Positions 1-36,205 of a stretch of 64,000 bases of DNA are shown one piece after another. Below the pieces are notes generated by a model. The model ran no database searches and was not told the origin of the DNA. It was given only the letters and a program-made list of their open reading frames with translations. The DNA lies in contig NZ_JADPUN010000177.1 in the NCBI RefSeq assembly GCF_015690345.1, positions 1 through 64,000 of the forward strand. Direction: 5' to 3'. The DNA comes from Plantactinospora alkalitolerans. Lineage in GTDB: Bacteria > Actinomycetota > Actinomycetes > Mycobacteriales > Micromonosporaceae. The first letter of the stretch is position 1. Each line of letters starts with the position of its first letter. The translations under genes were made by a program, and so were the position numbers.

Positions 1-108
1 GTCTGTGGATCCGGCATCGTCTGTGGATCCGGCATCGTCTGTGGATCCGGCATCGTCTGTGGATCCGGCATCGTCTGTGGATCCGGCATCGTCTGTGGAT
101 CCGGCATC
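1..108. repeat. 18-bp tandem repeat, six copies, inside MFS gene
   Basis: Six exact copies of GTCTGTGGATCCGGCATC run from the left edge, and the array may continue beyond it. Each contains a BamHI site. On the minus strand a unit encodes DAGSTD in frame, so copy-number change would lengthen or shorten the central loop of the transporter by six residues without breaking the frame. Confidence 0.95.
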
Positions 109-735
109 GTCGCCGGTCCGCCCGGTCGACGCGGTCCCGGCGGTCCCGGCCCGGTGTTCGGGCAGCGCCAGGGCCACCGCCGCGCAGAGCAGTGACACGA
201 GCACACTCGCCGCACCCGCCGCCGGGTAGCCACCGCTGGCGAACACCGGAGCCGCGACCGCGGTGGCCAGCAGCACGGCGAGCAGGCTGAGCGTGCTGGC
301 CCGGCCGATGACCCGCCCGTACCGGTCGGCCAGGCCGAGTCGGTCGAGTTCCTCGTAGACCAGTGCCTCGGAGGCTCCGGACTGGAGCGCACCGCGCGCT
401 CCCCACAGCACGAACCCGAGCGCGAACGCCCAGTACGAGGGGGCCGCGACCCACAGTCCGAACCCGAGGCCACCGAGCAGCGGTGCTCCGGCGAGCAGCA
501 GCCGCCGGGAGACCATGTCGGCCCAGACGCCGGAGGGGACCTCCAGCAGGATGCCGGTCGCGGCCCAGATGACGAACAGCGAGGAGATCTCGGCGACGGA
601 GAGTCCGGTGTCGGTGAAGAGCAACGCGTACACCGGGTAGAGCAGGACGAAGTCGTCCAGGAACGCGTAGAGGTAGAAGGTGACGACGAGACGCCGCGCG
701 GCGCTCGCCGCCGCGCGCGCTGGAGAGATGAACAT
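1..735 (-). CDS. MFS transporter, N-terminal half (runs off left edge)
   Basis: The frame begins with an ATG at 733-735 behind a GGGAAGG ribosome binding site and stays open to the window edge, so only about 245 N-terminal residues are visible. They form roughly six hydrophobic helices, starting near VVTFYLYAFLDDFVLLYP. A motif-A-like loop follows the second helix (EVPSGVWADMVSRR), typical of major facilitator superfamily transporters. After helix 6 the chain enters the central cytoplasmic loop, which here is made of six DAGSTD hexapeptides encoded by an 18-bp tandem repeat. The substrate cannot be told; similar actinobacterial proteins are usually called drug or small-molecule exporters. The gene is divergent from 1183. 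Family assignment is from helix pattern and the motif-A-like segment. Confidence 0.8.
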   Translation of the reverse strand, partial: MFISPARAAASAARRLVVTFYLYAFLDDFVLLYPVYALLFTDTGLSVAEISSLFVIWAATGILLEVPSGVWADMVSRRLLLAGAPLLGGLGFGLWVAAPSYWAFALGFVLWGARGALQSGASEALVYEELDRLGLADRYGRVIGRASTLSLLAVLLATAVAAPVFASGGYPAAGAASVLVSLLCAAVALALPEHRAGTAGTASTGRTGDDAGSTDDAGSTDDAGSTDDAGSTDDAGSTDDAGSTD

Positions 736-1789: not shown

Positions 1790-3139
1790 ATGCGCCAGCA
1801 GGACCGCCAGATCAACGACGACACCCCCGATGTGATCAAGTCCGAGCCGGTGCCCGTACCCGGGCCCGGCAGCGTCGAGTTCCCGGCGCCGGACGACCCC
1901 GACGGCCGACACCGGACCGGTTACCCGAACAGCGACATCGCCGACCACGGTCCGGAGGACGCGCTGGACGAGCGGGGCTCCTACGACAACGACCTCGACA
2001 CGTCCGGGCCGGGACCGTGGTCCGGCGACCCGGCGGCGGACGCACGTACCAGGGACGAGCGGCTCGGGAGCGACCGCCGGCCCGAGGAACGGGCCGAGGA
2101 CGCCGCGTTGGACGACGACGCGCTCACCGAGCGCACCCCCGGCGACCGGGCGGCGGACCCCGACGGCGACGACCGCGGCACGAGCGACCGGGGCGACCTG
2201 GCCGACGCCAGCCAGGCCGACGCCGACGGCCCGTCGGCGGATGCCGACAGATCACGGGCCGACGCCGAACGGGCCGACGCCGAGCTGGTCGACACCGAAC
2301 GGGCCGACGGCGAGCACGTCGACGCCCAGCAGGCCGACGCCGAGCAGGTCGACACCGAACGGGCCGACGGCGAGCAGGTCGACGGGGACGCCCGGAACCG
2401 GCCGGAGTTCCACGAGCCGGCACCGCTGCCGACCTCCTTCGGCGCCCCGACGGTCGGCGGCGCGGTAGCGGCGTCCGCGCTGGCCGGGAGCCACCGCGAC
2501 GCCCGGGAGGAGGACACCGTCCGATCCGGCGACGGCCCGGCCGAGGACCGGATCGACGGCGTCGGCGACGAATCGGAGCGTGACCGCCACGCCATCCTGG
2601 CCAGCGACGAGGACCGGAGTCTGGGCGCCGCCGATGCCGCGGTCGATCAGCGGTCCGACGGAACGGCCGTGGGCCGGGATGCGATCGACGGCGCGGACCA
2701 TGGATTTGGCACCGCGAACACGACGGAGACCGGCAGCACCACGGATGCCGTAACCACGCCGGATGCCGTAACCGTGTCGGATACCGGAACCGTGCCGGAT
2801 ACCGGAACCACACCGGCTGCCGGTACGACGCCGGACGGCGAACTGCTGCCCGGCGCGGCACCGGCCGAGCCGATCGTCGCCATCCTCAGCCCGGACACCG
2901 TCCAGGGCCTCCGCGACCGGTGGCGGGAGGTCCAACTGCGCTTCGTGGACGATCCGCCCGGCGCTACCGCCGACGCCCACCGACTGGTCGAGGAGTCCGT
3001 CGACGCGGTCACCGCCGCCCTGACGCAGCAGCGCGAGGAACTCGGCGGCTGGCAGCGCGACGGCGCGACCGACACCGAGGAGTTGCGCATGGTGGTCCGC
3101 CGGCACCGGGACTTCCTGGACCGCCTGCTCGGCAGCTAG
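1790..3139 (+). CDS. Acidic low-complexity protein sharing the C-terminal domain of its neighbour
   Basis: The ATG at 1790 is preceded by TAAGGAG at a good distance and lies 13 nt after the previous stop. The 449-residue product is extremely rich in Asp, Glu and Ala. Residues about 150-205 are degenerate repeats of ADAE/VDTERADGE type, and residues about 318-347 are five TPDAVT/TPDTGT hexads encoded by an 18-bp DNA repeat. A hydrophobic stretch near GGAVAASALAG is too weak to call a membrane helix. The last 85 residues are folded-looking and match the neighbouring protein: RWREVQLRFVDDP and TEELRMVVRRHRDFLDRLLG. The long disordered acidic arm followed by a small domain suggests a tether or scaffold, but no function is known to me. 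Confidence 0.8.
   Translation: MRQQDRQINDDTPDVIKSEPVPVPGPGSVEFPAPDDPDGRHRTGYPNSDIADHGPEDALDERGSYDNDLDTSGPGPWSGDPAADARTRDERLGSDRRPEERAEDAALDDDALTERTPGDRAADPDGDDRGTSDRGDLADASQADADGPSADADRSRADAERADAELVDTERADGEHVDAQQADAEQVDTERADGEQVDGDARNRPEFHEPAPLPTSFGAPTVGGAVAASALAGSHRDAREEDTVRSGDGPAEDRIDGVGDESERDRHAILASDEDRSLGAADAAVDQRSDGTAVGRDAIDGADHGFGTANTTETGSTTDAVTTPDAVTVSDTGTVPDTGTTPAAGTTPDGELLPGAAPAEPIVAILSPDTVQGLRDRWREVQLRFVDDPPGATADAHRLVEESVDAVTAALTQQREELGGWQRDGATDTEELRMVVRRHRDFLDRLLGS
2741..2830. repeat. 18-bp tandem repeat, five degenerate copies, in the acidic protein gene
   Basis: Five consecutive 18-nt units at 2741, 2759, 2777, 2795 and 2813 follow the pattern CCGGATRCCGKAACCRYG. They keep the reading frame and give hexapeptides of the type TPDAVT and VPDTGT. 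Confidence 0.9.
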
Positions 3140-8648: not shown

Positions 8649-9839
8649 ATGTCCAAGAAGTTCCTCGGCAAGGTGATCGCTGGAGCCGCTCTGGGCGGCG
8701 CGTCCCTACTGGTATGGGCCCCCTCGACCGCTCTCGCGGACGGCGGGTACCACCCGGACGGGTACCAGAAGCACGACTCGGGCCATGTCTTCGCGAAGCC
8801 GGAAGTGGCAAAGCCAGGGCAGGAGGTCAAATTCATCGAGGTCTGCTCTGAGGCGCAGGAGCACGCATGGCTGTGGTCCAAGGTCACCGGCAAGGTGGAT
8901 CTGGCACCCAAGGACCACAAGGTGGGCCACGAAGGCGGCAAGGAAGCCGACAAGAAGGCCGAAGAGCGCAAGGACGGCTGGGACGACAAGAAGGCCGGAG
9001 ACAGCGCGGAGGACGCCGCGAAGCCCGGGGACGCCGGCGGCCACGAAAGCAGCGGCGAAAACTACAAGAAAGAGCGCGAGTACCAGGAGTTCCTGAAGTA
9101 CAAGGAGCAACAGGAGTACCTCGAGTACCGCCGCTACAAGGACAAGGCGGCCCCGGAGGAGGAGCAGGCGGCCCCGGGAGAGAAGGAAGCGCCGGAGGCC
9201 GAGGGCGCTCCGTCTGCCGGAGAAGGGGCACCCGCCGCGCCTGGCCCGACGGCCGACGCGGTCCCGGCTCCGACACCGTCGGCGACCGGGCAGCTCCCCC
9301 AGCCTGCCGAGGGCTACCAGCCGCCGGCCGGCGGTGCCGGTGGCGCCATGGCGGACGACGGTAAGGCATACGAAGAGGGCGCGCAGGGCTGGGACGGCAA
9401 GAAGGCCGACGAGGGCGAGCACGGCCGGGACGACAAGAAGGCCCAGGAAGGCGAACGCACCTGGGAAGACAGCAAGCCGGCCGAGAAGGGCAAGCCCAAC
9501 TCGGACGAGAAGAAGGCCCAGGAGGGCGAGCACGGCTGGGAGGACAAGAAGGCCGACGAGGGCGAGCACGGCTGGGACGACAAGAAGGCCGGCTACGAGT
9601 ACTGGGCCAGTGTCACCATCCCGTGGGACGCCAAGCCGGGGACGTACGAAGTGAAGGGCTCGTGCGGCGAGGGCGAGTTCGTCGTCACGCCCAAGGGTTG
9701 GGTCGACGGTGGTGACGGTGGACTCACCTCCGGCAGCAGCGACAACCTCGCGGTTGCGGGCGTGGGCATGCTCGGCATGGCCGCCCTCGGCGGGCTGGTA
9801 CTGATGCGGCAGCGCCGTACCGATGAATCGCACGCCTGA
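8649..9839 (+). CDS. Surface protein 1: split beta-sandwich with charged-repeat insert, sortase-type C terminus
   Basis: The ATG at 8649 gives MSKKFLGKVIAG, which aligns with the paralogue at 10858 and has GGGAAGG 12 nt upstream; an ATG at 8637 touches the ribosome binding site and is less likely. The 396-residue protein has a signal peptide (to about STALA). The first half-domain (about 38-85) contains KPGQEVKFIEVC and WLWSKVTGK. A long Lys/Asp/Glu-rich insert (about 90-315) follows, with 12-residue KKADEGEHGWDD-like repeats. The second half-domain (about 318-350) is YWASVTIPWDAKPGTYEVKG followed by a Cys. Then come VDGGDGG, a membrane helix and an RQRRTDE tail. The two half-domains resemble one interrupted Ig-like fold closed by a disulfide. 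It overlaps its sortase gene by 17 nt. Confidence 0.85.
   Translation: MSKKFLGKVIAGAALGGASLLVWAPSTALADGGYHPDGYQKHDSGHVFAKPEVAKPGQEVKFIEVCSEAQEHAWLWSKVTGKVDLAPKDHKVGHEGGKEADKKAEERKDGWDDKKAGDSAEDAAKPGDAGGHESSGENYKKEREYQEFLKYKEQQEYLEYRRYKDKAAPEEEQAAPGEKEAPEAEGAPSAGEGAPAAPGPTADAVPAPTPSATGQLPQPAEGYQPPAGGAGGAMADDGKAYEEGAQGWDGKKADEGEHGRDDKKAQEGERTWEDSKPAEKGKPNSDEKKAQEGEHGWEDKKADEGEHGWDDKKAGYEYWASVTIPWDAKPGTYEVKGSCGEGEFVVTPKGWVDGGDGGLTSGSSDNLAVAGVGMLGMAALGGLVLMRQRRTDESHA
9370..9590. repeat. Imperfect 36-bp coding repeat in surface protein 1
   Basis: Units of about 36 nt encoding KKADEGEHGxDD, KKAQEGERTWED, KKAQEGEHGWED and KKADEGEHGWDD recur through this stretch, separated by one divergent unit. They form the C-terminal part of the charged insert. 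Confidence 0.8.
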
Positions 9840-19950: not shown

Positions 19951-20184
19951 TCAGCGGGCCAGCGCCAGACCTTCCTTGTCGGTGAACTTGCCGATCAGGA
20001 TCATGATGAAGTCGATCAGCACCCAGACGCCGAGCCCACCGAAGGTCAGGATCATGAGAACGCCGGTGCCGATCTTGCCGACGTAGAACCGGTGCACCCC
20101 GAACCCGCCGAGGAAGAAGCAGAGCAGCACCGCGACGAGCCAGGACCGGGTCCCGACGCCAGCACCGGTAGTGGTTGTGGACAT
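19951..20184 (-). CDS. TM2 domain-containing small membrane protein
   Basis: The ATG at 20182-20184 has AAGGGA upstream and gives a 77-residue protein starting MSTTTTGAG; a longer frame lacks support. It consists almost entirely of a TM2 domain, two helices with the hallmark [19 protein letters not shown] between them, followed by [18 protein letters not shown]. The function of bacterial TM2 proteins is unknown. It lies between the penicillin-binding protein and the TetR regulator, transcribed toward the former. Confidence 0.9.
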
Positions 20185-20340
20185 GTTTATTCCCTTCAGG
20201 ACACACAGGCTGATTGCGCGCGCCGGAGGACGGCGCGACTCGTCCACGCCAAGGGGGTTTTCCGGCGTGGACGGCGATCGCGCACACTACCGCAACAGGC
20301 GCGGTCATGTTGTCCCTGAGCTGGGGTCCGAGCAGGGACG

Positions 20341-20934
20341 TTACGGGGCGACGGGCCGAGGCAGGCTCGCGACGAACATCGCGATCAGTTGCTCGTACGT
20401 CTCGTCCAGATCCTCCGGTAGGCCGAAGCCGCCCCCGGCCTCGATCGAGACGAAACCGTGCGCGATGGACCGGGCACACCTCGTGGCGTGGATCGCCCCC
20501 GAATCCGTGAGCCCGTATCCGCGCAGGGTGGCGAGGAAGACCTGCAACAGCCGGGTGCCGGCGGCCACCATCACCGGGTTGTGCAACGGGTCGGGGGGCA
20601 GCGCGGCATAGCGGGCGGGATGGTCCCGTACGTAATCGCGGTAGCCGCGCATCAGCACCGCCACCGCCTCGTCCCCACTGCGGCCCATCGCCGCCGCCGT
20701 GAACCGCTCGGTCATCTCGTCCATCACCCGCGCGCCGACCAGCATCCGCAGCTCGGCGAGTCCTGCGACGTGCTTGTAGAGCGACGGCGGCGCGACCCCG
20801 GTACGCCCGGCGACCGCCGCCAGGGTCAGCGCCTCCGCGCCCTGCTCGTCGATGACGGCCAGCGCGGCGTCCACGACCGCCGTGGTGGACAATCCGGCCC
20901 TAGGCACCGCTTCGTCCGGCAGGGACTCGAACAC
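20341..20934 (-). CDS. TetR-family transcriptional regulator
   Basis: The 197-residue protein has an N-terminal helix-turn-helix (about 18-62) containing ALTLAAVAGRTGVAPPSLYKHV, the classic TetR recognition-helix pattern. A C-terminal ligand-binding region of the WHG/TetR_C type follows (RDHPARYAALPPDP near 105). The apparent start is a GTG at 20932-20934 without a strong ribosome binding site, so leaderless translation is possible. A small inverted repeat ATAGC-N6-GCTAT 24 nt upstream could be its own operator. No obvious target gene neighbours it: the TM2 gene is on the same strand downstream and the arginase-like gene ends toward it. Confidence 0.88.
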   Translation of the reverse strand: MFESLPDEAVPRAGLSTTAVVDAALAVIDEQGAEALTLAAVAGRTGVAPPSLYKHVAGLAELRMLVGARVMDEMTERFTAAAMGRSGDEAVAVLMRGYRDYVRDHPARYAALPPDPLHNPVMVAAGTRLLQVFLATLRGYGLTDSGAIHATRCARSIAHGFVSIEAGGGFGLPEDLDETYEQLIAMFVASLPRPVAP

Positions 20935-21168: not shown

Positions 21169-22923
21169 TCAGGCGATCTCCGCAGCCGACCCGGTCTCCG
21201 GACCTGGCGTCGGCGACTCCCGATCCGGCCCACCGATCCCCGGCACGGAATCATCGGCCGGCAGCACACCGGCCGACGGAGTCTCGGCGGGCCGCAGGCC
21301 CGTGGCTGGCGAGGAGTGGCGCCGTAGCCGTCCCGGGCCCGCCGACGCGGGCGGGCCGACCGCCTCGGACCAGCGGGCGGACAGGTCGCGAGGCTCGGGC
21401 CGTCGGGAGTTGACGCTGGTCGACTCGTCCCGGCCGAACGACGCGGCACCGTCGAACGACGCGCCCCGATCGGATGCCTCAAGGCCCTCGGGCAGCCCAA
21501 CACCCTCGGGCAACTCGACACTCGCGGGCAGCCCAGCACGGGCAGACGACTCAGCCCGATCGAACGACTCAGCCCGATCGAACGACTCAGCCCGGTCGGA
21601 CGACTCAGCCCGATCGGACGACTCAGCAGGGTCGGCGGCGACCGGGGCGCGGCGGTCAGACCCTGGTCCGACCGCCTGCACCAAAGGCTCGTCCGACACC
21701 GGAATCAGGGACGGGACCGGGGTCGGGGTCGGGACCGGGGACGACACCGGAATCAGGGGCGACACCGGAATCAGGGGCGACACCGGAATCGGGGCCGGGT
21801 CCGGAATCGGGGCCGGGACCGCGCCCAGGGCGGCCGCCGCCGACGAGGGCTGGGCGAAGGCAGACATCCCGAGCGGCGGGACGCCCCGCGGCGCGACCGT
21901 GGACACGGTGGGCTGCCTGGCCGGCGGGACCGCCCGGGGTCCGGGCATCGCCGTCGGACCGCGCTCGGTTCCGGCTGACCGGGTCGACACGAGCCGCGGC
22001 GGGACCGCGTCCGGGGCGGCGACCGGAGCCAGACCGGCGACCAACGTACCGACGATCTCGGCGGCGTACGAGCCGGTCGGGTCGTAGTCGGGGTCGAAGA
22101 CCGTGACCTCCACCCCCAGACAGTGCGGGGTGTCGACCAGGCCCGCCAACAGCAGCTCCAACTCGGCGAACGCGATCCCGCCCGGGTCCGGCGCGTCGAC
22201 CGCCGGCATCACCGCCGGGTCGAGTACGTCGACGTCGACGTGCACCCAGTAGCCCGCGCAGTCGGTCAACTGGTCATGGGCCCACTGGGCGGTCCGGGCC
22301 GCCCCCTCGACCCGCAGCGCCGGTACCGGCCGGGTCACGATCCCGGCCGCCTGCAGGTCGAGTCGGTACTCGTCATGGGCCCGGATGCCGAGCACCACCA
22401 CGTCGATGTCCCGAAAGTACGGCCGGCGTCCCTCGATCGCGGCCAGGTCGGCCTGTCCCCGCCCGGTGACCAGGGCCAGGTCCTCGCCGGCCGCCGCGCC
22501 GACGTACGAGGCATTGCCCGGGTGCCGGAAGTCGGAATGGCCGTCCACGAAGACGAGGCCGATCCGACCGCCGACCGACTCGCCGAGCCGGTGCATCGCG
22601 AGCGCCGAACCGAGCAGGATGGAGCAGTCCCCGCCGAGCACCAGCGGGAACTCGCCCTGGTCGATGATCCCGCCGATCCGGTCGGCCAACTCCATCGAGT
22701 AGTCCGCGATCGCACCGGCATGGCACACCCCGTCCCCGGGACGCCAGTCGCCCGGGTCGTACCGGGACGGGGTGAGGCAGCCGGCGTCCCGGGCTCCCAG
22801 CCGGGCGATCAGCTCGTGGTCCCGCAGCGCGCCCGGTGCCTTGGCACAGCCCGGCACCGACGTGGAGGTCGGCGGACGCAGACCCAGGTTGGACGGAGCG
22901 TCCAGGACGGCGATCCGGCGCAT
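21169..22923 (-). CDS. Arginase-fold ureohydrolase-like enzyme with long disordered tail
   Basis: Residues 1 to about 305 form an arginase/agmatinase-type domain. VDGHSD (127-131), HVDVDVLDP and EVTVFDPDYDP match the manganese-binding motifs, and PDPGG is present. The usual GGDHS motif is GGDCS here (Cys100), so one histidine ligand is replaced by cysteine. Such enzymes hydrolyse guanidino compounds (arginine, agmatine, guanidinobutyrate) to urea, but the substrate is not clear and the Cys change leaves activity open. The remaining 280 residues are low complexity: PIPVSPLIPVS repeats, then DRAESS/DRAESF repeats from 18-bp DNA units, then Pro/Ser/Gly-rich sequence. Family members normally end near residue 310. 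Confidence 0.85.
   Translation of the reverse strand: MRRIAVLDAPSNLGLRPPTSTSVPGCAKAPGALRDHELIARLGARDAGCLTPSRYDPGDWRPGDGVCHAGAIADYSMELADRIGGIIDQGEFPLVLGGDCSILLGSALAMHRLGESVGGRIGLVFVDGHSDFRHPGNASYVGAAAGEDLALVTGRGQADLAAIEGRRPYFRDIDVVVLGIRAHDEYRLDLQAAGIVTRPVPALRVEGAARTAQWAHDQLTDCAGYWVHVDVDVLDPAVMPAVDAPDPGGIAFAELELLLAGLVDTPHCLGVEVTVFDPDYDPTGSYAAEIVGTLVAGLAPVAAPDAVPPRLVSTRSAGTERGPTAMPGPRAVPPARQPTVSTVAPRGVPPLGMSAFAQPSSAAAALGAVPAPIPDPAPIPVSPLIPVSPLIPVSSPVPTPTPVPSLIPVSDEPLVQAVGPGSDRRAPVAADPAESSDRAESSDRAESFDRAESFDRAESSARAGLPASVELPEGVGLPEGLEASDRGASFDGAASFGRDESTSVNSRRPEPRDLSARWSEAVGPPASAGPGRLRRHSSPATGLRPAETPSAGVLPADDSVPGIGGPDRESPTPGPETGSAAEIA
21547..21814. repeat. Two 18-bp tandem repeat arrays in the tail of the arginase-like gene
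   Basis: Array one (21547-21633) is four full copies and a partial copy of GACTCAGCCCGATCGAAC, encoding DRAESS-type hexads on the minus strand. Array two (21743-21814) is four copies around GACACCGGAATCAGGGGC, encoding IPVSPL-type hexads. Both keep the frame. Confidence 0.9.
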
Positions 22924-22986: not shown

Positions 22987-23922
22987 TCAGAAGAGCGCGC
23001 GCGAGAGCGCCCGCCGGGCGCTGGCCACCGCAGGATCGTCCGGACCGGCGATGCTGAACAGGGACACCAGGTGCTGCCGGGTCGCCTCCCGGTCATCGCC
23101 GGCGGTCCGGCGGACCAGTTCGACCAGCCGGGCGTACGCCTGCTCCGCCTGGCCGCTGAGCACCTCGATGTCGGCGGCCAGTAGCTGCGCCGCGACGTCG
23201 TCCGGCGCCGAGTCGGCCACCGCGAGCGCTGCCGCCGGGTCCGCACCGCTCACCCGGCGGGCCAGCGCGACGTGCGCCAGGCCGGCCTCGGCCGCGGCGT
23301 CCGCCGGAGCATCCGACAGGATCTTCTTGTACGCCCGCTCGGCGGCGTCCAGGTCACCGCTGATCAGCGCCTCGTCGGCCTCGGTGAGCCGGGGGTCCTC
23401 CGGAGCCTCCACCGATACGCCACCGGCCTTGAGGACCGCGCCGATCCACTGCCGCAACTGCGCCTCGGGCACCACGCCGGAGAAGGCGTCGACCGGCTGG
23501 CCGCCCACCACCGCGTAGACCATCGGGATGCCCTGCACCCGGAACATCTGGGCGAGGCGGGGGTTGGCGTCGACGTCGACCTTGGCGAGCACCCATGCGC
23601 CGTCGCCCTCGACGGCCAGCCGCTCCAACACCGGAGAGAGCTGTTTGCAGGGCTCGCACCACTCGGCCCAGAAGTCGATCACCACGGGGGTGGTCAGGGA
23701 ACGTTCCAGCACCTCGGACTGGAAAGTGGCTTCGGTGACGTCGATCACCGAGACTCCACCCGCGCCCGCGGGAGGTGTGCTGGCCGGGGCCGCGCCCGGC
23801 GTGGCACGGCTGGCCGGCTGGGCGGAGGGTGCCGGCGTGGCGGGCGTCTGGGCGGCGCGCAGCGCGCCGAGGTCTACCGCGCCGCGGGTGAAGATCGACG
23901 AGGTGATCCGTGGGTCGCTCAT
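22987..23922 (-). CDS. YbbN/CnoX-like thioredoxin-TPR protein
   Basis: The 311-residue protein has a Pro/Ala-rich N-terminal arm (to about 55), a thioredoxin domain (about 57-165) with active site WCEPC, and a C-terminal helical TPR-like region (about 185-311). This matches the YbbN/CnoX family of holdase chaperedoxins, which protect clients from oxidative aggregation. Unlike the E. coli protein, which has lost one cysteine, both cysteines are present, so thiol-disulfide activity is plausible. It is cytoplasmic, as no signal peptide is visible. It sits between the isobutyryl-CoA mutase gene and the arginase-like gene, all leftward, with 63 nt between this gene and the latter. Confidence 0.92.
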
Positions 23923-24033: not shown

Positions 24034-25722
24034 TCAGAACCGGGCCGGTTCCCGGTAGACGCCCCATTCGGCGCGCAGTGCGTCACAGATCTCCCCCAGG
24101 GTCGCTTCGGCGCGTACCGCGTCCAGCATCGGCGGAATGAGGTTCTCCCCGGTCCGGGCGACGTCGACCATCCGGGCCAGGGCCGCCGTCACGGCGTCGG
24201 CGTTCCGGCCGGTTCTGCGATCGCCCAGCAGCCGGCGCTGCTCCACCTCGACCTCGTGCGAGACCCGCATGATCTCCAGCTCCTTGGCGATCGTCCCGGT
24301 GTGGCAGTTCACTCCGACGATCCGCTTGTCGCCCTTCTCCAGCGCCTGCTGGTAGACGAAGGCCGACTCGGCGATCTGGCCGGTGAACCAACCGTCCTCG
24401 ATCCCGCGCAGGATGCCGGAGGTCATCGGCCCGATCGGGTGCGGCCCCTCCCCGCCGAGCTGCCGGATCCGGCTGAAGATCTCTTCCGCCTCGGCTTCGA
24501 GCCTGTCGGTGAGCGCCTCGACGTACCAGGAGCCACCGAGCGGATCGGCCACATTGGTGACTCCGGTCTCCTCCATCAGTACCTGCTGGGTCCGCAGCGC
24601 GATCTCGGCGGACGAGTCGCTGGGCAACGCCAGGGTTTCGTCCAGCGCATTGGTGTGCAGCGAGTTGGTGCCGCCGAGCACCGCGGCGAGCGCCTCGACC
24701 GCGGTGCGTACGACATTGTTGACCGGCTGTTGGGCGGTCAGCGACACCCCGGCGGTCTGGGTGTGGAAGCGCAGCCAGAGCGCGCGCTCGTCGGTGGCGC
24801 CGTACACCTCGCGCAACCATCGGGCCCAGATCCGGCGCGCGGCCCGGAACTTGGCGATCTCCTCGAAGAAGTCGACGTGCGAGTCGAAGAAGAAGCTCAG
24901 GCCGGGCGCGAAGCTGTTGACGTCCAGGCCCCGGGACAGTCCCAGTTCGACGTAGCCGAACCCGTCCGCGAGGGTGTACGCCAACTCCTGCGCGGCGGTC
25001 GACCCGGCCTCCCGGATGTGGTAGCCGGAGACCGACAGCGGCTTGTAGCGGGGGATCTCCCGCGCGCAGTACTCCATCAGGTCGCCGATCAACCGCAGGT
25101 GCGGCTCGGGATCGAAGAGCCACTCCTTCTGCGCGATGTACTCCTTGAAGATGTCGGTCTGGAGCGTTCCGTCGAGTGCGGAGATGTCGGCGCCCTGCCG
25201 TTCGGCGGCCACCAGGTACATGCAGAAGACCGGTACCGCCGGGCCCGAGATGGTCATCGAGGTGGTCACCCCGGCGAGGTCGATTCCGTCGAACAGCGTC
25301 TCCATGTCCGCCGCCGAGTCGATCGCCACCCCACAGTGCCCGACCTCGCCGAGCGCCTGCGGGTCGTCGGAGTCCCGGCCCATCAGGGTCGGCATGTCGA
25401 AGGCGACGGACAGTCCGCCGCCACCCGCGCCGAGGATCATCTTGTAGCGCTCGTTGGTCTGCCGGGCGTTGCCGAACCCGGCGAACTGCCGGATCGTCCA
25501 GGTCCGCCCCCGGTAGCCGGTCGGGTACAACCCCCGGGTGTACGGGTACTCGCCCGGCCAGCCGATCCGCTCGAAGCCGGGATGGGCGGTCCCGGGTTGG
25601 GGGCCGTACACCGGTTCGACGGGCAGGCCGGAGAGTGTGGTGAAGTCCGCGTCCCGCTTGCGTGCCGCGTCGTACCGGGCCTGCCAGCGGGCTCGACCAG
25701 CGGCGATTTCGTCGGCGTTCAT
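24034..25722 (-). CDS. icmA: Isobutyryl-CoA mutase large subunit (methylmalonyl-CoA mutase family)
   Basis: This 562-residue protein is the catalytic barrel of an adenosylcobalamin-dependent acyl-CoA mutase without the C-terminal B12-binding domain. [38 protein letters not shown] and [16 protein letters not shown] are family hallmarks. In methylmalonyl-CoA mutase an arginine contacts the substrate carboxylate in a KEFMVRN-type segment; here the equivalent is KEYIAQK, with Gln, the replacement typical of isobutyryl-CoA mutases. It would interconvert isobutyryl-CoA and butyryl-CoA, feeding valine carbon into fatty-acid and polyketide precursors. It needs a separate small B12-binding subunit (IcmB), not encoded in this window. 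The MeaB GTPase that protects such mutases lies 1.4 kb away. Start: ATG after AAGGAGG-type purines. Confidence 0.85.
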
Positions 25723-29517: not shown

Positions 29518-30114
29518 GTGGACGACGACGACTCGGTCTGGCCCGCTGCCGACAATGTCACAGGCACCGGTGACGTCACAGGCACTGACAACGCCACAGG
29601 CACTGGCAACGTCACAGGGATCGACAACGCCACAGGCACTGGCAACGTCACAGGGATCGACAACGCCACAGGCGCTGACAACGTCGCGGGGATCGGCCTG
29701 CTCCGTATCGATCATGTCGGGGTGGCGGTTTGGGACCTCGACGCGGCGATCGAGTTCTACCAGCGGGTCTTCGGGATGCGCTGCGTACACACCGAGACGA
29801 ACACGGAGCAGGGCGTCCGCGAGGCGATGCTGAGCGTCGGCCCGACACCGGCCGGCGGCTGCGTACAACTGCTGGCACCGTTGACCCCGGAGGCCCCGAT
29901 CGCGAAGTTCCTGAACCGGTTCGGGCCGGGCGTCCAGCAGGTGGCGTACACGGTGGCGGACGTCGATGCCGCCTGTGCCGCGCTGCGCGACCGGGGCGTG
30001 CGCGTGCTCTACGAGACGCCGAGACGCGGCACCGCGGGGTCCCGGATCAACTTCGTACATCCCCGGGACGCCGGTGGGGTGCTGGTGGAACTGGTCGAAC
30101 CCGCGAAGGGATGA
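29518..30114 (+). CDS. mce: Methylmalonyl-CoA epimerase with repeat-rich N-terminal arm
   Basis: From about residue 60 the 198-residue protein is a vicinal-oxygen-chelate fold epimerase. IDHVGVAVWDLDAAIEFY carries the first metal His, and GCVQLLAPL and VLVELVEP carry Gln and Glu ligands. The position where well-studied epimerases have a second His reads GPGVQQVAYTV here, so that ligand appears to be Gln. It interconverts (S)- and (R)-methylmalonyl-CoA, linking propionyl-CoA and mutase metabolism. Residues 1-59 are an added arm, mostly TGTGNV/TGIDNA hexads from an 18-bp DNA repeat. The GTG at 29518 has no ribosome binding site, so the transcript may be leaderless or the true start could lie near the fold. 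Confidence 0.88.
   Translation: MDDDDSVWPAADNVTGTGDVTGTDNATGTGNVTGIDNATGTGNVTGIDNATGADNVAGIGLLRIDHVGVAVWDLDAAIEFYQRVFGMRCVHTETNTEQGVREAMLSVGPTPAGGCVQLLAPLTPEAPIAKFLNRFGPGVQQVAYTVADVDAACAALRDRGVRVLYETPRRGTAGSRINFVHPRDAGGVLVELVEPAKG
29551..29694. repeat. 18-bp tandem repeat, eight units, at the 5' end of the epimerase gene
   Basis: Eight consecutive 18-nt units based on GACAACGCCACAGGCACT and GGCAACGTCACAGGGATC, partly alternating as a 36-nt higher-order unit, encode an in-frame hexapeptide series. Confidence 0.95.
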
Positions 30115-34018: not shown

Positions 34019-36205
34019 ATGTCGCACGGCGAGGAACTGTTTGCCCTGAACGGGGACGTGGCTACGGAGCCGAGCTTCGAGCCGGCCTTTCGGGGCTACG
34101 ATAAAGGGCAGGTGGATCGGTACGTCGCTCGCGCCGAGAACGATATCGCCACCCTGGCGGCCCAGCGTGAGCACGCGTACAGCCAGATTCACAACCTGGC
34201 GGGTCAGGTCGAGGTGTTACAGCGCGACCTCACGGCGGTACGTCGGCAGACCGGCGTGGTGGACCGGGCCTCCTTCCGGCACCTGGGTCCGGTGGTCGAA
34301 CAGATCCTGACCCTGGCCGAGGAACAGGCCGAGTCCATCGCGCGGGACGCGGCGCACGAGATCGACGCCCGCAAGGCCGAGGCCGACCAGGTCCTCGAGG
34401 ACGCCCGCCAGCAGGCCGCCGACGCGCTCCGCGACTTCGAGCTGGCCCTCACCGCCCGGCGGGCGGAGGAGGAGAAGGTCAACACGGCCCGACGGGCCGA
34501 GGCCGACGCCGCCGTCGCCGCCGCCGCCCAGGAGGCCACCCGGCTCCGCGAGGCCGCCCAGGCCGCCTTCGCAAAGGCCCAGCAGGAAAGCTCCGAGTTG
34601 CGCAACCGCGCCGCCGAGGAGGCGAACCGACTGCGCGACGCCAGCCAGGCGGCACACGCCAAGGCCCTGCAGGAGGCGAAGCAGCTCCGGGACACCGCCG
34701 AGCAGGAGGCGACCCGGCTCACCGAGCAGACCGCGCGGGAGAGCCAGGAGCTGACCGAGCGGACCGAGCGGGAGACCCAGCAGGTCGTCGAGCGGGCCCG
34801 GCAGGAGTCGGCACGGCTCCGCCACGCCGCCCAGCACGAGGCCAACCGGCTGCGCGACGCCGCCCAGCAGGAGGCCACCCGGCTCCGCGAGGCCGGCCAG
34901 GCGGCACACGTCAAGGCCCAGCAGGAGGCCCAGCGCCTCACCGACGCGGCGGCGCAGGAAGCCGACCGGGTGGTCGAACTCGCCAAGCAGGAGGCCACCC
35001 GGCTCCGCGAGGCCGGCGAGGGGCTGTACGCGAAGGCCAAGCACGAGGCGACCCAGCTACGCGAGGCCGGGCAGGCGGCACACGCCAAGGCCCAGCAGGA
35101 GGCGAAGCGGATCAACGAGGAGACCGCCGAGTTCGTCCAGCGTTCCCGGGCCGACGTGGAGGACTACGCCCAGAAGATCCGAGCGGAGACGCAGCAGGAG
35201 CTGGGCGCCTGGCGGGCCGGGGTCGAGCAGGAGGTGAACCGGCGTACCACCGCCGCCGAGCAGGAGATCGCCGCCCAGCGGACGGCTGCCGAGGAGGAGC
35301 TGGCCGCCGGTCGGGCCGCGCTGGAGGAGGAACTGGCCGCCTACCGGGCCGGAGCCGACCGCGAGTACGCCCAACGGCAGTCCGAACTGGAGCAGCAGTT
35401 CCAGCAGCGGCAGGCGGAGCTGGAGCAGTCGTACGAGGAACGGCGTGCGGAGATCGAGGGCGGCGCCGACGAGGTGCGCCGGCAGGCCGACGAGTACGCC
35501 GCCGAGGTCCGGGCGAAGGCGGAGGAGCGGGCCGCCGAGATCCGCCGGGAGGCCGAGGAGCGTCTCGCCGAGTTGCACCGGGAGGCGGAGGAGCAGGCCG
35601 CCACGTCCCGCCGCCAGTTCGAGGAGTACATGGCGACCGCGCAGCAGCACCTGGCCACCACCCAGCAGCACCTGGCCAGTACCCAGCAGGAGGCGGTCGC
35701 CGGACGGCAGCAGTTGGCCGAGGTCATGCAGGAGATCGCCGCGGCTCAGCAGGCACTCGCCGACATCCGGCAGGAGACGGTGTCCTCCCGGCAGGAATCC
35801 GACCGGATCCAGCGACAGTTGGCCACGGCGCGCGAGCAACTGGCCGGCGAGCAGGACCGGTTGACGGGTACGGAGCAGTCGGCCCAGCAGGCCGGGGAGC
35901 AGTTGGCCCAGGCCGAGGCCGACATGCAGCAGCTCGTCGAGGCGGCCGCCGAGCAGACCGCTCCGGACAAGCGGGCCGACGGTGGCCGGTCGTCCGGGTC
36001 GACCCGGGTGACCGAGCCGGTGACCGGCGGCGTGGACGGCGGGTTGGACGGAGAGCCGACGGTGGCCGCGATGCCGGGTACCGGTGGCCGCGAGCCGACG
36101 CCCACCAAGATCACAAGCACCGGCGACTCCGGCAAGCGGAGCGGCAAGCCGATCGTCGAGGACCAGGGCACGAAGTCGAACAAGGTCAGCGTCGACTCGG
36201 ACTGA
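34019..36205 (+). CDS. Scy-like long coiled-coil polarity protein with DivIVA domain
   Basis: The ATG at 34019 (MSHGEELF) has GGGAG close upstream. The 728-residue protein has a DivIVA-like segment FEPAFRGYDKGQVDRYVARAE (about 20-40) and YSQIHNLAGQVEVLQRDL, then HLGPVVEQILTLAEEQAESIARDAAHEIDA. A coiled coil of about 530 residues follows, with repeats such as EATRLREAGQAAHAKAQQEA that suggest hendecad periodicity, then Gln-rich HLATTQQHLAST repeats and a disordered tail (about 640-728). Scy in Streptomyces organises the tip polarisome. This protein is shorter than Scy, so it may be a relative rather than the true orthologue. No membrane segments. Confidence 0.78.
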   Translation: MSHGEELFALNGDVATEPSFEPAFRGYDKGQVDRYVARAENDIATLAAQREHAYSQIHNLAGQVEVLQRDLTAVRRQTGVVDRASFRHLGPVVEQILTLAEEQAESIARDAAHEIDARKAEADQVLEDARQQAADALRDFELALTARRAEEEKVNTARRAEADAAVAAAAQEATRLREAAQAAFAKAQQESSELRNRAAEEANRLRDASQAAHAKALQEAKQLRDTAEQEATRLTEQTARESQELTERTERETQQVVERARQESARLRHAAQHEANRLRDAAQQEATRLREAGQAAHVKAQQEAQRLTDAAAQEADRVVELAKQEATRLREAGEGLYAKAKHEATQLREAGQAAHAKAQQEAKRINEETAEFVQRSRADVEDYAQKIRAETQQELGAWRAGVEQEVNRRTTAAEQEIAAQRTAAEEELAAGRAALEEELAAYRAGADREYAQRQSELEQQFQQRQAELEQSYEERRAEIEGGADEVRRQADEYAAEVRAKAEERAAEIRREAEERLAELHREAEEQAATSRRQFEEYMATAQQHLATTQQHLASTQQEAVAGRQQLAEVMQEIAAAQQALADIRQETVSSRQESDRIQRQLATAREQLAGEQDRLTGTEQSAQQAGEQLAQAEADMQQLVEAAAEQTAPDKRADGGRSSGSTRVTEPVTGGVDGGLDGEPTVAAMPGTGGREPTPTKITSTGDSGKRSGKPIVEDQGTKSNKVSVDSD

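What the first reader, a model, noticed from the sequence alone, without database searches (positions are those of the whole stretch)
21169..22923. Arginase-fold enzyme with a His-to-Cys metal ligand and a repeat tail
GGDCS replaces the near-universal GGDHS while the other metal motifs are intact, so the binuclear site is altered (a Cys ligand suggests a different metal or lost activity). The enzyme also carries a 280-residue tail made by two different 18-bp arrays, unusual for this family.
Basis: partly seen in the sequence, partly recalled or inferred. Interest (0 to 1): 0.55.

Follow-up and report, generated by a model that had tools for sequence, protein, structure and literature searches.

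The report
Cysteine-site arginase-like protein with variable tail
This is a strongly conserved arginase-shaped metal enzyme of unknown substrate whose cysteine metal site marks a whole branch of the family rather than an oddity, carrying a fast-changing repeat tail that still keeps one short fixed motif.

Summary
The 584-aa ORF has an arginase-fold core (residues 1-305) with GGDCS and a 279-aa tail. Three 18-bp arrays cover 262 of the tail's 837 bp. The His-to-Cys change is not a private lesion: Cys is in 157 of 157 unique cores aligned, from actinobacteria, proteobacteria, one Bacteroidota and haloarchaea, and is a single change on a 59-row tree. The metal-A acids are equally fixed, while the metal-B His is lost in 20 of 157. 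The arginase proton-shuttle His and guanidinium Glu are absent throughout, so it is unlikely to be an ordinary arginase, although one distant Cys enzyme (zmARG) is a published Mn arginase. The gene is in 120 of 121 Micromonosporaceae genomes and lies just behind a chaperedoxin-like thioredoxin gene in 104 of 106 orthologues. The tail is translated and turns over fast (1 to about 1200 aa), but 61 of 108 tails keep [GA]PGxLRR, and 23 identical VGPPASAGPGLLRR peptides have 23 different codings. Best reading: an active orphan Cys-branch metallohydrolase with a tether ending in a docking motif. Substrate, metal and activity are untested.

The parts
21169..22923 (-). whole ORF, 584 aa plus stop, ATG start
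22009..22923 (-). arginase-fold core, residues 1-305
   Evidence: Pfam PF00491; VIA-align Z 15.1 to Bacillus subtilis arginase 6dkt
22621..22635 (-). GGDCS motif (residues 97-101); Cys100 stands at rat arginase His101
   Evidence: conserved 157 of 157
22531..22545 (-). DGHSD (residues 127-131): Asp127, His129, Asp131 at rat Asp124, His126, Asp128
   Evidence: Asp127 and Asp131 157 of 157, His129 137 of 157
22489..22491 (-). Ala145 codon, at the place of the rat His141 proton shuttle
   Evidence: alignment; Ala/Gly in 157 of 157
22216..22236 (-). DVDVLDP (residues 230-236): Asp230 and Asp232 at rat Asp232 and Asp234
   Evidence: 156 of 156 with a residue there
22099..22101 (-). Val275 codon, at the place of rat Glu277 (guanidinium binding)
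   Evidence: alignment; never Glu in 154 with a residue there
21172..22008 (-). tail, residues 306-584, repeat-rich, Pro/Ala/Ser/Glu rich
21698..21821 (-). 18-bp array A, encodes PIPxxx / LIPVSP repeats (about residues 371-409)
   Evidence: TRF; 30 aa of it absent from the close relative L160
21545..21627 (-). 18-bp array B, encodes DRAES(S/F) repeats (about residues 433-460)
   Evidence: TRF, 93% matches; related but different copies in L160
21485..21539 (-). 18-bp array C, 3.1 copies, 75% matches
   Evidence: TRF
21319..21369 (-). conserved short motif SEAVGPPASAGPGRLRR (residues 519-535)
21172..21189 (-). C-terminal SAAEIA
   Evidence: 29 of 100 tails of 20 aa or more end IA, 21 end TA
22987..23922 (-). 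thioredoxin + TPR_20 gene directly upstream, YbbN/chaperedoxin-like, 63 bp from the arginase-like ATG
   Evidence: Pfam; PDB 3qou ybbN and 9wcw chaperedoxin; adjacent in 104 of 106 orthologues
24034..25722 (-). methylmalonyl-CoA mutase gene, next upstream (context)
   Evidence: Pfam PF01642; synteny

Best explanation
The core is a working metal-dependent C-N hydrolase of the arginase fold, from a Cys branch that is distinct from arginase and agmatinase, and is a core gene of the family Micromonosporaceae. Proposed mechanism: metal A is held by Cys100, Asp127, Asp131 and Asp230, metal B by Asp127, His129, Asp230 and Asp232, and a bridging hydroxide attacks the planar carbon of the substrate. 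SHOWN HERE: the residues, their conservation, purifying selection, the fold, the operon-like pairing, and the translated tail with a selected motif. SHOWN ELSEWHERE, for the distant zmARG: Cys binding to metal A and Mn-dependent activity. INFERRED: two metals are bound; with rat His141 and Glu277 replaced, protons are shuttled and the substrate is held differently, so the substrate is probably not plain arginine or agmatine; the chaperedoxin-like partner (active site WCEPC) folds or protects the protein, perhaps keeping the metal-binding thiol reduced; and the tail is a length-tolerant disordered tether presenting VGPPASAGPGxLRR to an unknown partner.
For: Cys100, Asp127 and Asp131 in 157 of 157 unique cores; Asp230 and Asp232 in 156 of 156 with a residue there; His129 in 137 of 157. 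Cys a single change on the tree, 49 Cys rows (quick IQ-TREE; SH-aLRT 92 for the 49-row branch). 120 of 121 family genomes, and 107 of 107 of those at least 90% complete and at most 5% contaminated. Core dN/dS 0.078-0.124 against eight relatives. Arginase fold, Z 15.1, rmsd 3.7 over 221 residues (model pTM 0.69, pLDDT 54.7). Thioredoxin/TPR gene upstream on the same strand, match-to-match gap 8-336 bp, in 104 of 106 orthologues. Tail motif in 61 of 108 tails, shuffled mean 0.07, maximum 2 in 200 rounds; 23 copies of VGPPASAGPGLLRR with 23 different DNA sequences. zmARG paper for Cys-metal A and Mn.
Against: No activity, metal or substrate has been measured. Loss of His129 in 20 of 157 members, of both arginase catalytic residues in all, and a thioredoxin partner would also fit a non-catalytic protein. 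Members outside Micromonosporaceae show no common neighbour that names a pathway. The structure model is of low confidence around the active site (residues 128-171 under pLDDT 50), so the site geometry was not tested. The tail motif is missing from 34 of the 95 tails of 40 aa or more, and several of the divergent family members have practically no tail, so the tail is not needed for the basic function.
Confidence: 0.58

Rival explanations
1. It is an ordinary manganese arginase in which Cys simply replaces His, as in zmARG; the tail is unimportant.
For: zmARG with GGDCL has Mn-dependent arginase activity, Km 6.8 mM, kcat 302 per s (PMC6988801 section 12). Nearest non-Cys relatives on the tree are rocF-type arginases. 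Asp184 at rat Asp183 is kept in 107 of 107 family orthologues.
Against: 82.7 bits against NCBIfam's arginase cut-off of 227.6. Rat His141 -> Ala/Gly in 157 of 157, Glu277 never Glu, Asn130 -> Arg in 107 of 107 and Ser137 -> Val in 106 of 107 family orthologues. zmARG's presumed chain 6ksy is only a weak match to this core (E 7e-4). The only other PF00491 gene of the genome is a GGDHS protein of another type.
Confidence: 0.12
2. It is an amidinohydrolase acting on a modified guanidine, in the manner of DcsB (N-omega-hydroxy-L-arginine amidinohydrolase), possibly for a specialised metabolite.
For: DcsB has a Cys ligand on metal A (recalled, not read here). The PDB chains 6lug, 7eul, 7euq of an N-hydroxyarginine amidinohydrolase are hits of Cys-branch members L111, L107 and L129.
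Against: A gene kept in 120 of 121 family genomes in a fixed place beside housekeeping genes does not look like a specialised-metabolite gene. These chains were not among the 60 rows shown for the family profile itself.
Confidence: 0.08
3. It is a pseudo-enzyme: the fold and a structural metal are kept for binding partners, and the tail is the working part.
For: Catalytic His and Glu of arginase lost in all; His129 lost in 20 of 157, in up to 6 changes on the tree, one of them a truncated row; tail motif under selection.
Against: The most invariant positions include exactly the metal-A ligands and the pocket stretch FVDGHSDFRHPGNASYVGAAAGE, and tailless members conserve the metal-A ligands equally.
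Confidence: 0.15
4. The tail is an artefact of assembly or of an over-long ORF.
For: The contig itself starts inside a perfect 18-bp array (1-111), so arrays may have troubled this assembly; a few relatives carry the motif in another frame, as if an array had shifted it (L047, L068/L161, L071).
Against: Same tail layout in the single-contig relative L160; 23 different codings of one peptide; the arrays here are 55-124 bp long; array periods are multiples of 3 in 63 of 72 tails with arrays.
Confidence: 0.03

Closest known systems
zmARG, Zymomonas mobilis arginase ZMO0432 (PMC6988801; chain 6ksy_A in the PDB search, an assignment by recall)
   Same: Arginase fold; Cys in place of the first metal-binding His; the same acid ligands; published with the keyword 'GGDCS motif'.
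   Different: GGDCL and DSHPD instead of GGDCS and DGHSD; weak sequence match to this core; no long tail reported in the sections read; substrate shown to be arginine, here unknown.
DcsB, N-omega-hydroxy-L-arginine amidinohydrolase (taken to be 6lug, 7eul, 7euq)
   Same: Cys ligand on metal A (recalled); sequence hits from Cys-branch members.
   Different: Belongs to the D-cycloserine pathway (recalled); here a family-wide gene beside a chaperedoxin-like gene.
Arginase RocF / TIGR01229
   Same: Fold, five of six metal ligands.
   Different: His101, His141, Glu277, Asn130 and Ser137 all changed; far below the NCBIfam cut-off.
NCBI 'arginase family protein' genes of the Cys branch (plasmid records of Sinorhizobium, Rhizobium, Clavibacter, Halocatena, Pantoea)
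   Same: Full-length homologues, 34-50% identical, Cys kept in those read.
   Different: No tail (2-8 residues beyond the domain); no thioredoxin neighbour in the annotation shown; function not annotated.
Peptide arginase OspR (PMC10028609, two passages read)
   Same: Another arginase-superfamily branch with a changed GGDHS motif.
   Different: EEH(N/H)EAF replaces GGDHS there; no such motif here.

Membership tests
Arginase/ureohydrolase superfamily (PF00491) | Profile score over the curated cut-off | tested here: met
   101.6 bits, cut-off 22
Arginase/ureohydrolase superfamily (PF00491) | Arginase fold | tested here: met
   VIA-align Z 15.1, 221 residues aligned, model pTM 0.69 but pLDDT 54.7
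Arginase (EC 3.5.3.1, TIGR01229) | NCBIfam equivalog cut-off 227.6 bits | tested here: not met
   82.7 bits
Arginase (EC 3.5.3.1, TIGR01229) | GGDHS metal motif | tested here: not met
   GGDCS, residues 97-101
Arginase (EC 3.5.3.1, TIGR01229) | Proton-shuttle His (rat His141) and guanidinium Glu (rat Glu277) | tested here: not met
   Ala145 and Val275; His never, Glu never among 157 unique cores
Arginase (EC 3.5.3.1, TIGR01229) | Mn-dependent hydrolysis of L-arginine | not testable with these tools
   Needs an assay
Agmatinase (TIGR01230) and formimidoylglutamase (TIGR01227) | NCBIfam cut-offs 174.3 and 229.15 bits | tested here: not met
   42.2 and 51.2 bits
Cys branch of the arginase fold (defined here) | Cys at rat His101, Ala/Gly at rat His141, no Glu at rat Glu277, acid ligands kept | tested here: met
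DcsB-type N-hydroxyarginine hydrolase | Hydroxyguanidine substrate | not testable with these tools
   Needs an assay
zmARG-type dimeric arginase | Dimer through a protruding C-terminal helix | not tested
   Oligomer not modelled; the full-length model is uninformative (pLDDT 38.5)

The most novel reading that the evidence does not exclude
The Cys branch is a separate enzyme class on the arginase fold that runs on metal site A alone, with a thiolate ligand, and hydrolyses something other than a guanidine: the thiolate site is never lost while the second metal's His is lost again and again. In Micromonosporaceae it is a universal enzyme held in a redox and folding partnership with a chaperedoxin, and tethered to a partner by a hypervariable repeat linker with a selected VGPPASAGPGxLRR end.
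Probability: 0.2. Interest if true: 0.68.

Novelty: new variant of a known kind. Interest (0 to 1): 0.42.

Why it matters
The Cys metal ligand itself is in print (zmARG; DcsB from recall), but here it marks a cross-domain branch in which metal site A is invariant and site B is expendable, a natural test of whether two metals are needed on this fold. A gene in practically every Micromonosporaceae genome with no known substrate, nearly always behind a chaperedoxin-like gene, is a good target for finding a missing housekeeping reaction in an antibiotic-producing family. The tail gives a clean case of a hypervariable repeat linker around a conserved short motif in bacteria, where such motifs are seldom documented (general knowledge, not searched beyond).

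Tried and rejected
Lost-activity reading rejected on strong purifying selection and universality. Assembly-artefact reading of the tail rejected.

Neighbours outside Micromonosporaceae gave no single pathway: GNAT, DUF5107, adenine deaminase, amidase, MerR, MFS and others in the class loci (20 proteins scanned, chosen from the neighbours listed, one of them from the family locus L135); VOC genes directly upstream in 4 plasmid loci (L208, L210, L213, L214).

A single-sequence model of the full protein was useless (mean pLDDT 38.5, core included), so tail disorder rests on composition and turnover only. The alignment-based core model was poor at the active site; geometry was not examined. 6lug and 6ksy did not appear in the 50 rows; absence there says nothing. 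DcsB and zmARG could not be put on the tree because their sequences were not at hand. The AU test of 48 Cys rows without L237 did not reject (p 0.219), which shows nothing by itself. Sigma-70 promoter and terminator scans found nothing (0 and 0), as expected for high G+C DNA. Paper searches for DcsB found nothing useful; the PMC set holds one paper with GGDCS and arginase; no paper held Micromonosporaceae, tandem repeat and intrinsically disordered together.

Rows dropped before counts: exact duplicate cores, second fetches of the same genomes (most of L115-L134), the GGDHS rows L081, L217, L218, and Bosea L213, whose gene has a deletion that removes the Cys motif and the DxHxD region. For one search, ORFs that run off a locus end and duplicates. 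L232, L235 and L237 (Cys present, motif AGNCN / GGSCT / GGNCT) are on the tree but not in the 157. The tree used 59 chosen rows of those available, built by the quick method without bootstrap.

Full report
WHAT IS THERE. The window is contig 441 of a 9.2-Mb genome. Its best matches in the named genome scan are Plantactinospora and Micromonospora. The ORF at 21169-22923 (-) encodes 584 aa. Residues 4-293 match Pfam Arginase (101.6 bits), well below the NCBIfam cut-offs for arginase, agmatinase and formimidoylglutamase. GGDCS, DGHSD and DVDVLDP lie where arginases carry GGDHS, DAHxD and DxDxxDP. The tail is 279 residues; TRF reports three 18-bp arrays in it, together 262 of 837 bases.

CYS IS A CLADE MARK. 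All 80 loci of the named genome scan have GGDCS. A search of 296 genomes of the class found relatives in 32 at E <= 1e-20; in the members read, Cys stands in this place, with GGECS, GGCCA and GADCT as rarer forms of the motif. The plasmid collection has 122 records with a match, the weakest of them ordinary arginases; those fetched and read from Sinorhizobium, Rhizobium, Shinella, Phyllobacterium, Pantoea, Clavibacter, Hymenobacter, Streptomyces and the archaeon Halocatena have GGDCS, GGDCT or GGDCA. Bosea L213 is an exception, with a deletion across the motif. Aligning 157 unique cores (107 family orthologues and 50 others, drops listed under Tried and rejected), Cys100 is in 157 of 157, Asp127 157 of 157, Asp131 157 of 157, Asp230 and Asp232 in 156 of 156, and His129 in 137 (8 Ser, 5 Asn, 7 gaps). 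On a quick IQ-TREE tree of 59 rows with arginases, agmatinases and GGDNS proteins as outside rows, the Cys state needs one change and the 49-row Cys branch has SH-aLRT 92. The loss of His129 needs six changes, one of which is a truncated row.

WHY IT IS PROBABLY NOT AN ARGINASE. From the alignments to Thermus arginase and, for a paralogous member, human arginase, rat His141 falls on Ala145 and rat Glu277 on Val275; numbering and roles of the rat residues are recalled. In the 157 cores the first is Ala or Gly in all, and the second is Val, Ile, Asp or Cys, never Glu. Asn130 and Ser137 are Arg in 107 of 107 and Val in 106 of 107 family orthologues. Against this stands zmARG, which has a Cys on metal A and is a Mn-dependent arginase (PMC6988801; abstract and sections 12, 14 and 19 read). 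So Cys alone predicts neither another metal nor inactivity. DcsB is a second known Cys case, from recall; PDB chains of an N-hydroxyarginine amidinohydrolase are hits of other Cys-branch members.

IT IS A CORE GENE UNDER CONSTRAINT. 120 of 121 family genomes have it, and 107 of 107 of those at least 90% complete and at most 5% contaminated (the miss, G319, is 80% complete). Core identity to the window is 85-96% in 47 aligned orthologues, and dN/dS against eight relatives is 0.078-0.124. The model folds as an arginase (Z 15.1), with low local confidence.

ITS PARTNER. Directly upstream is a thioredoxin-TPR protein, among whose best PDB matches are ybbN and chaperedoxin entries, matched over the thioredoxin part. 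By tblastn it is upstream on the same strand in 104 of 106 unique orthologues, with 8-336 bp between the matched stretches; in the other two the matches are 849 and 2153 bp apart. Methylmalonyl-CoA mutase is next in most of the loci. No promoter or terminator pattern was found in the stretch, which is no evidence either way in this DNA. None of the 20 wide class loci, L115-L134, matched the thioredoxin query.

THE TAIL. Among complete orthologues tails run from 1 to 1232 aa (108 unique rows). Divergent family members L135, L136, L137, L139 and L154 have practically none. Of 100 tails of at least 20 aa, 72 hold a TRF array; the best array's period is a multiple of three in 63 of the 72, and the units differ from species to species. 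Against the closest relative L160 (core 97% identical), the window tail has 30 extra residues of array A and a different set of array B copies. Tail dN/dS against the six relatives L155-L160 is 0.38-0.67, against about 0.1 for the core; against Micromonospora L017 it is 0.59 and against Salinispora L066 1.13, both on poorly alignable sequence. In this turnover [GA]PGxLRR is kept in 61 of 108 tails (61 of 95 of at least 40 aa; shuffled mean 0.07, maximum 2), mostly 16-60 residues from the end. Three further genes carry it in another frame. The peptide VGPPASAGPGLLRR occurs 23 times in 23 different codings: the frame is real and the peptide selected. No second good copy of this stretch was found in the window's genome (best other E 0.06).

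JUDGEMENT. Best reading: an active orphan metallohydrolase of a Cys branch (0.58). Rivals: plain arginase (0.12), hydroxyarginine-type amidinohydrolase (0.08), pseudo-enzyme scaffold (0.15), tail artefact (0.03). The Cys ligand is known, so the finding as first stated is not new. The branch-wide pattern (site A fixed, site B loose), the family-wide thioredoxin pairing and the selected motif in a hypervariable tail were not met in the searches made here, which cover open-licence PMC papers only and of which only the listings were seen, apart from the papers named.

Noticed in passing
window 1-111: The contig starts inside a perfect 18-bp tandem array (6.2 copies, 100% matches), as if assembly broke there; an ORF on the minus strand runs off the end.
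   Followed up: no
window 2257-2384, 9371-9591, 29550-29695, 34814-35103: Many other arrays with periods that are multiples of three lie within long ORFs of this window, e.g. a charged repeat at 9371-9591 and an array at the start of the ORF that holds the window's best glyoxalase-family match (29704-30093).
   Followed up: partly
L208, L210, L213, L214: A VOC (glyoxalase-type) gene sits directly upstream of the arginase-like gene in Clavibacter, two Rhizobium and Bosea plasmids.
   Followed up: partly
L213 (Bosea plasmid): This copy of the gene has lost the stretch from GGDC through DxHxD by an in-frame deletion.
   Followed up: no
L206, L207 (Halocatena plasmids): Archaeal homologues 47-50% identical to the window core, closer than the rhizobial ones; suggests transfer between domains.
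   Followed up: partly
L068/L161, L071, L047: Phytohabitans and one Micromonospora carry the tail motif in another frame from the core ORF, as if a frameshift lies in the repeat region.
   Followed up: partly
window 19951-20934: TM2 and TetR genes between the arginase-like gene and the penicillin-binding-protein gene were matched only in Plantactinospora-type loci among the family loci compared (plus one weak TetR match in L154).
   Followed up: partly
L116, L117: A DUF5107 gene directly follows the Cys-branch gene in two genomes of family f20.
   Followed up: no
L220, L222-L224, L226-L229: A separate actinobacterial arginase-superfamily branch with GGDNS or GGDNA in place of GGDHS.
   Followed up: no
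L144, L145: Two family genomes have an insertion in the core around residue 118.
   Followed up: no
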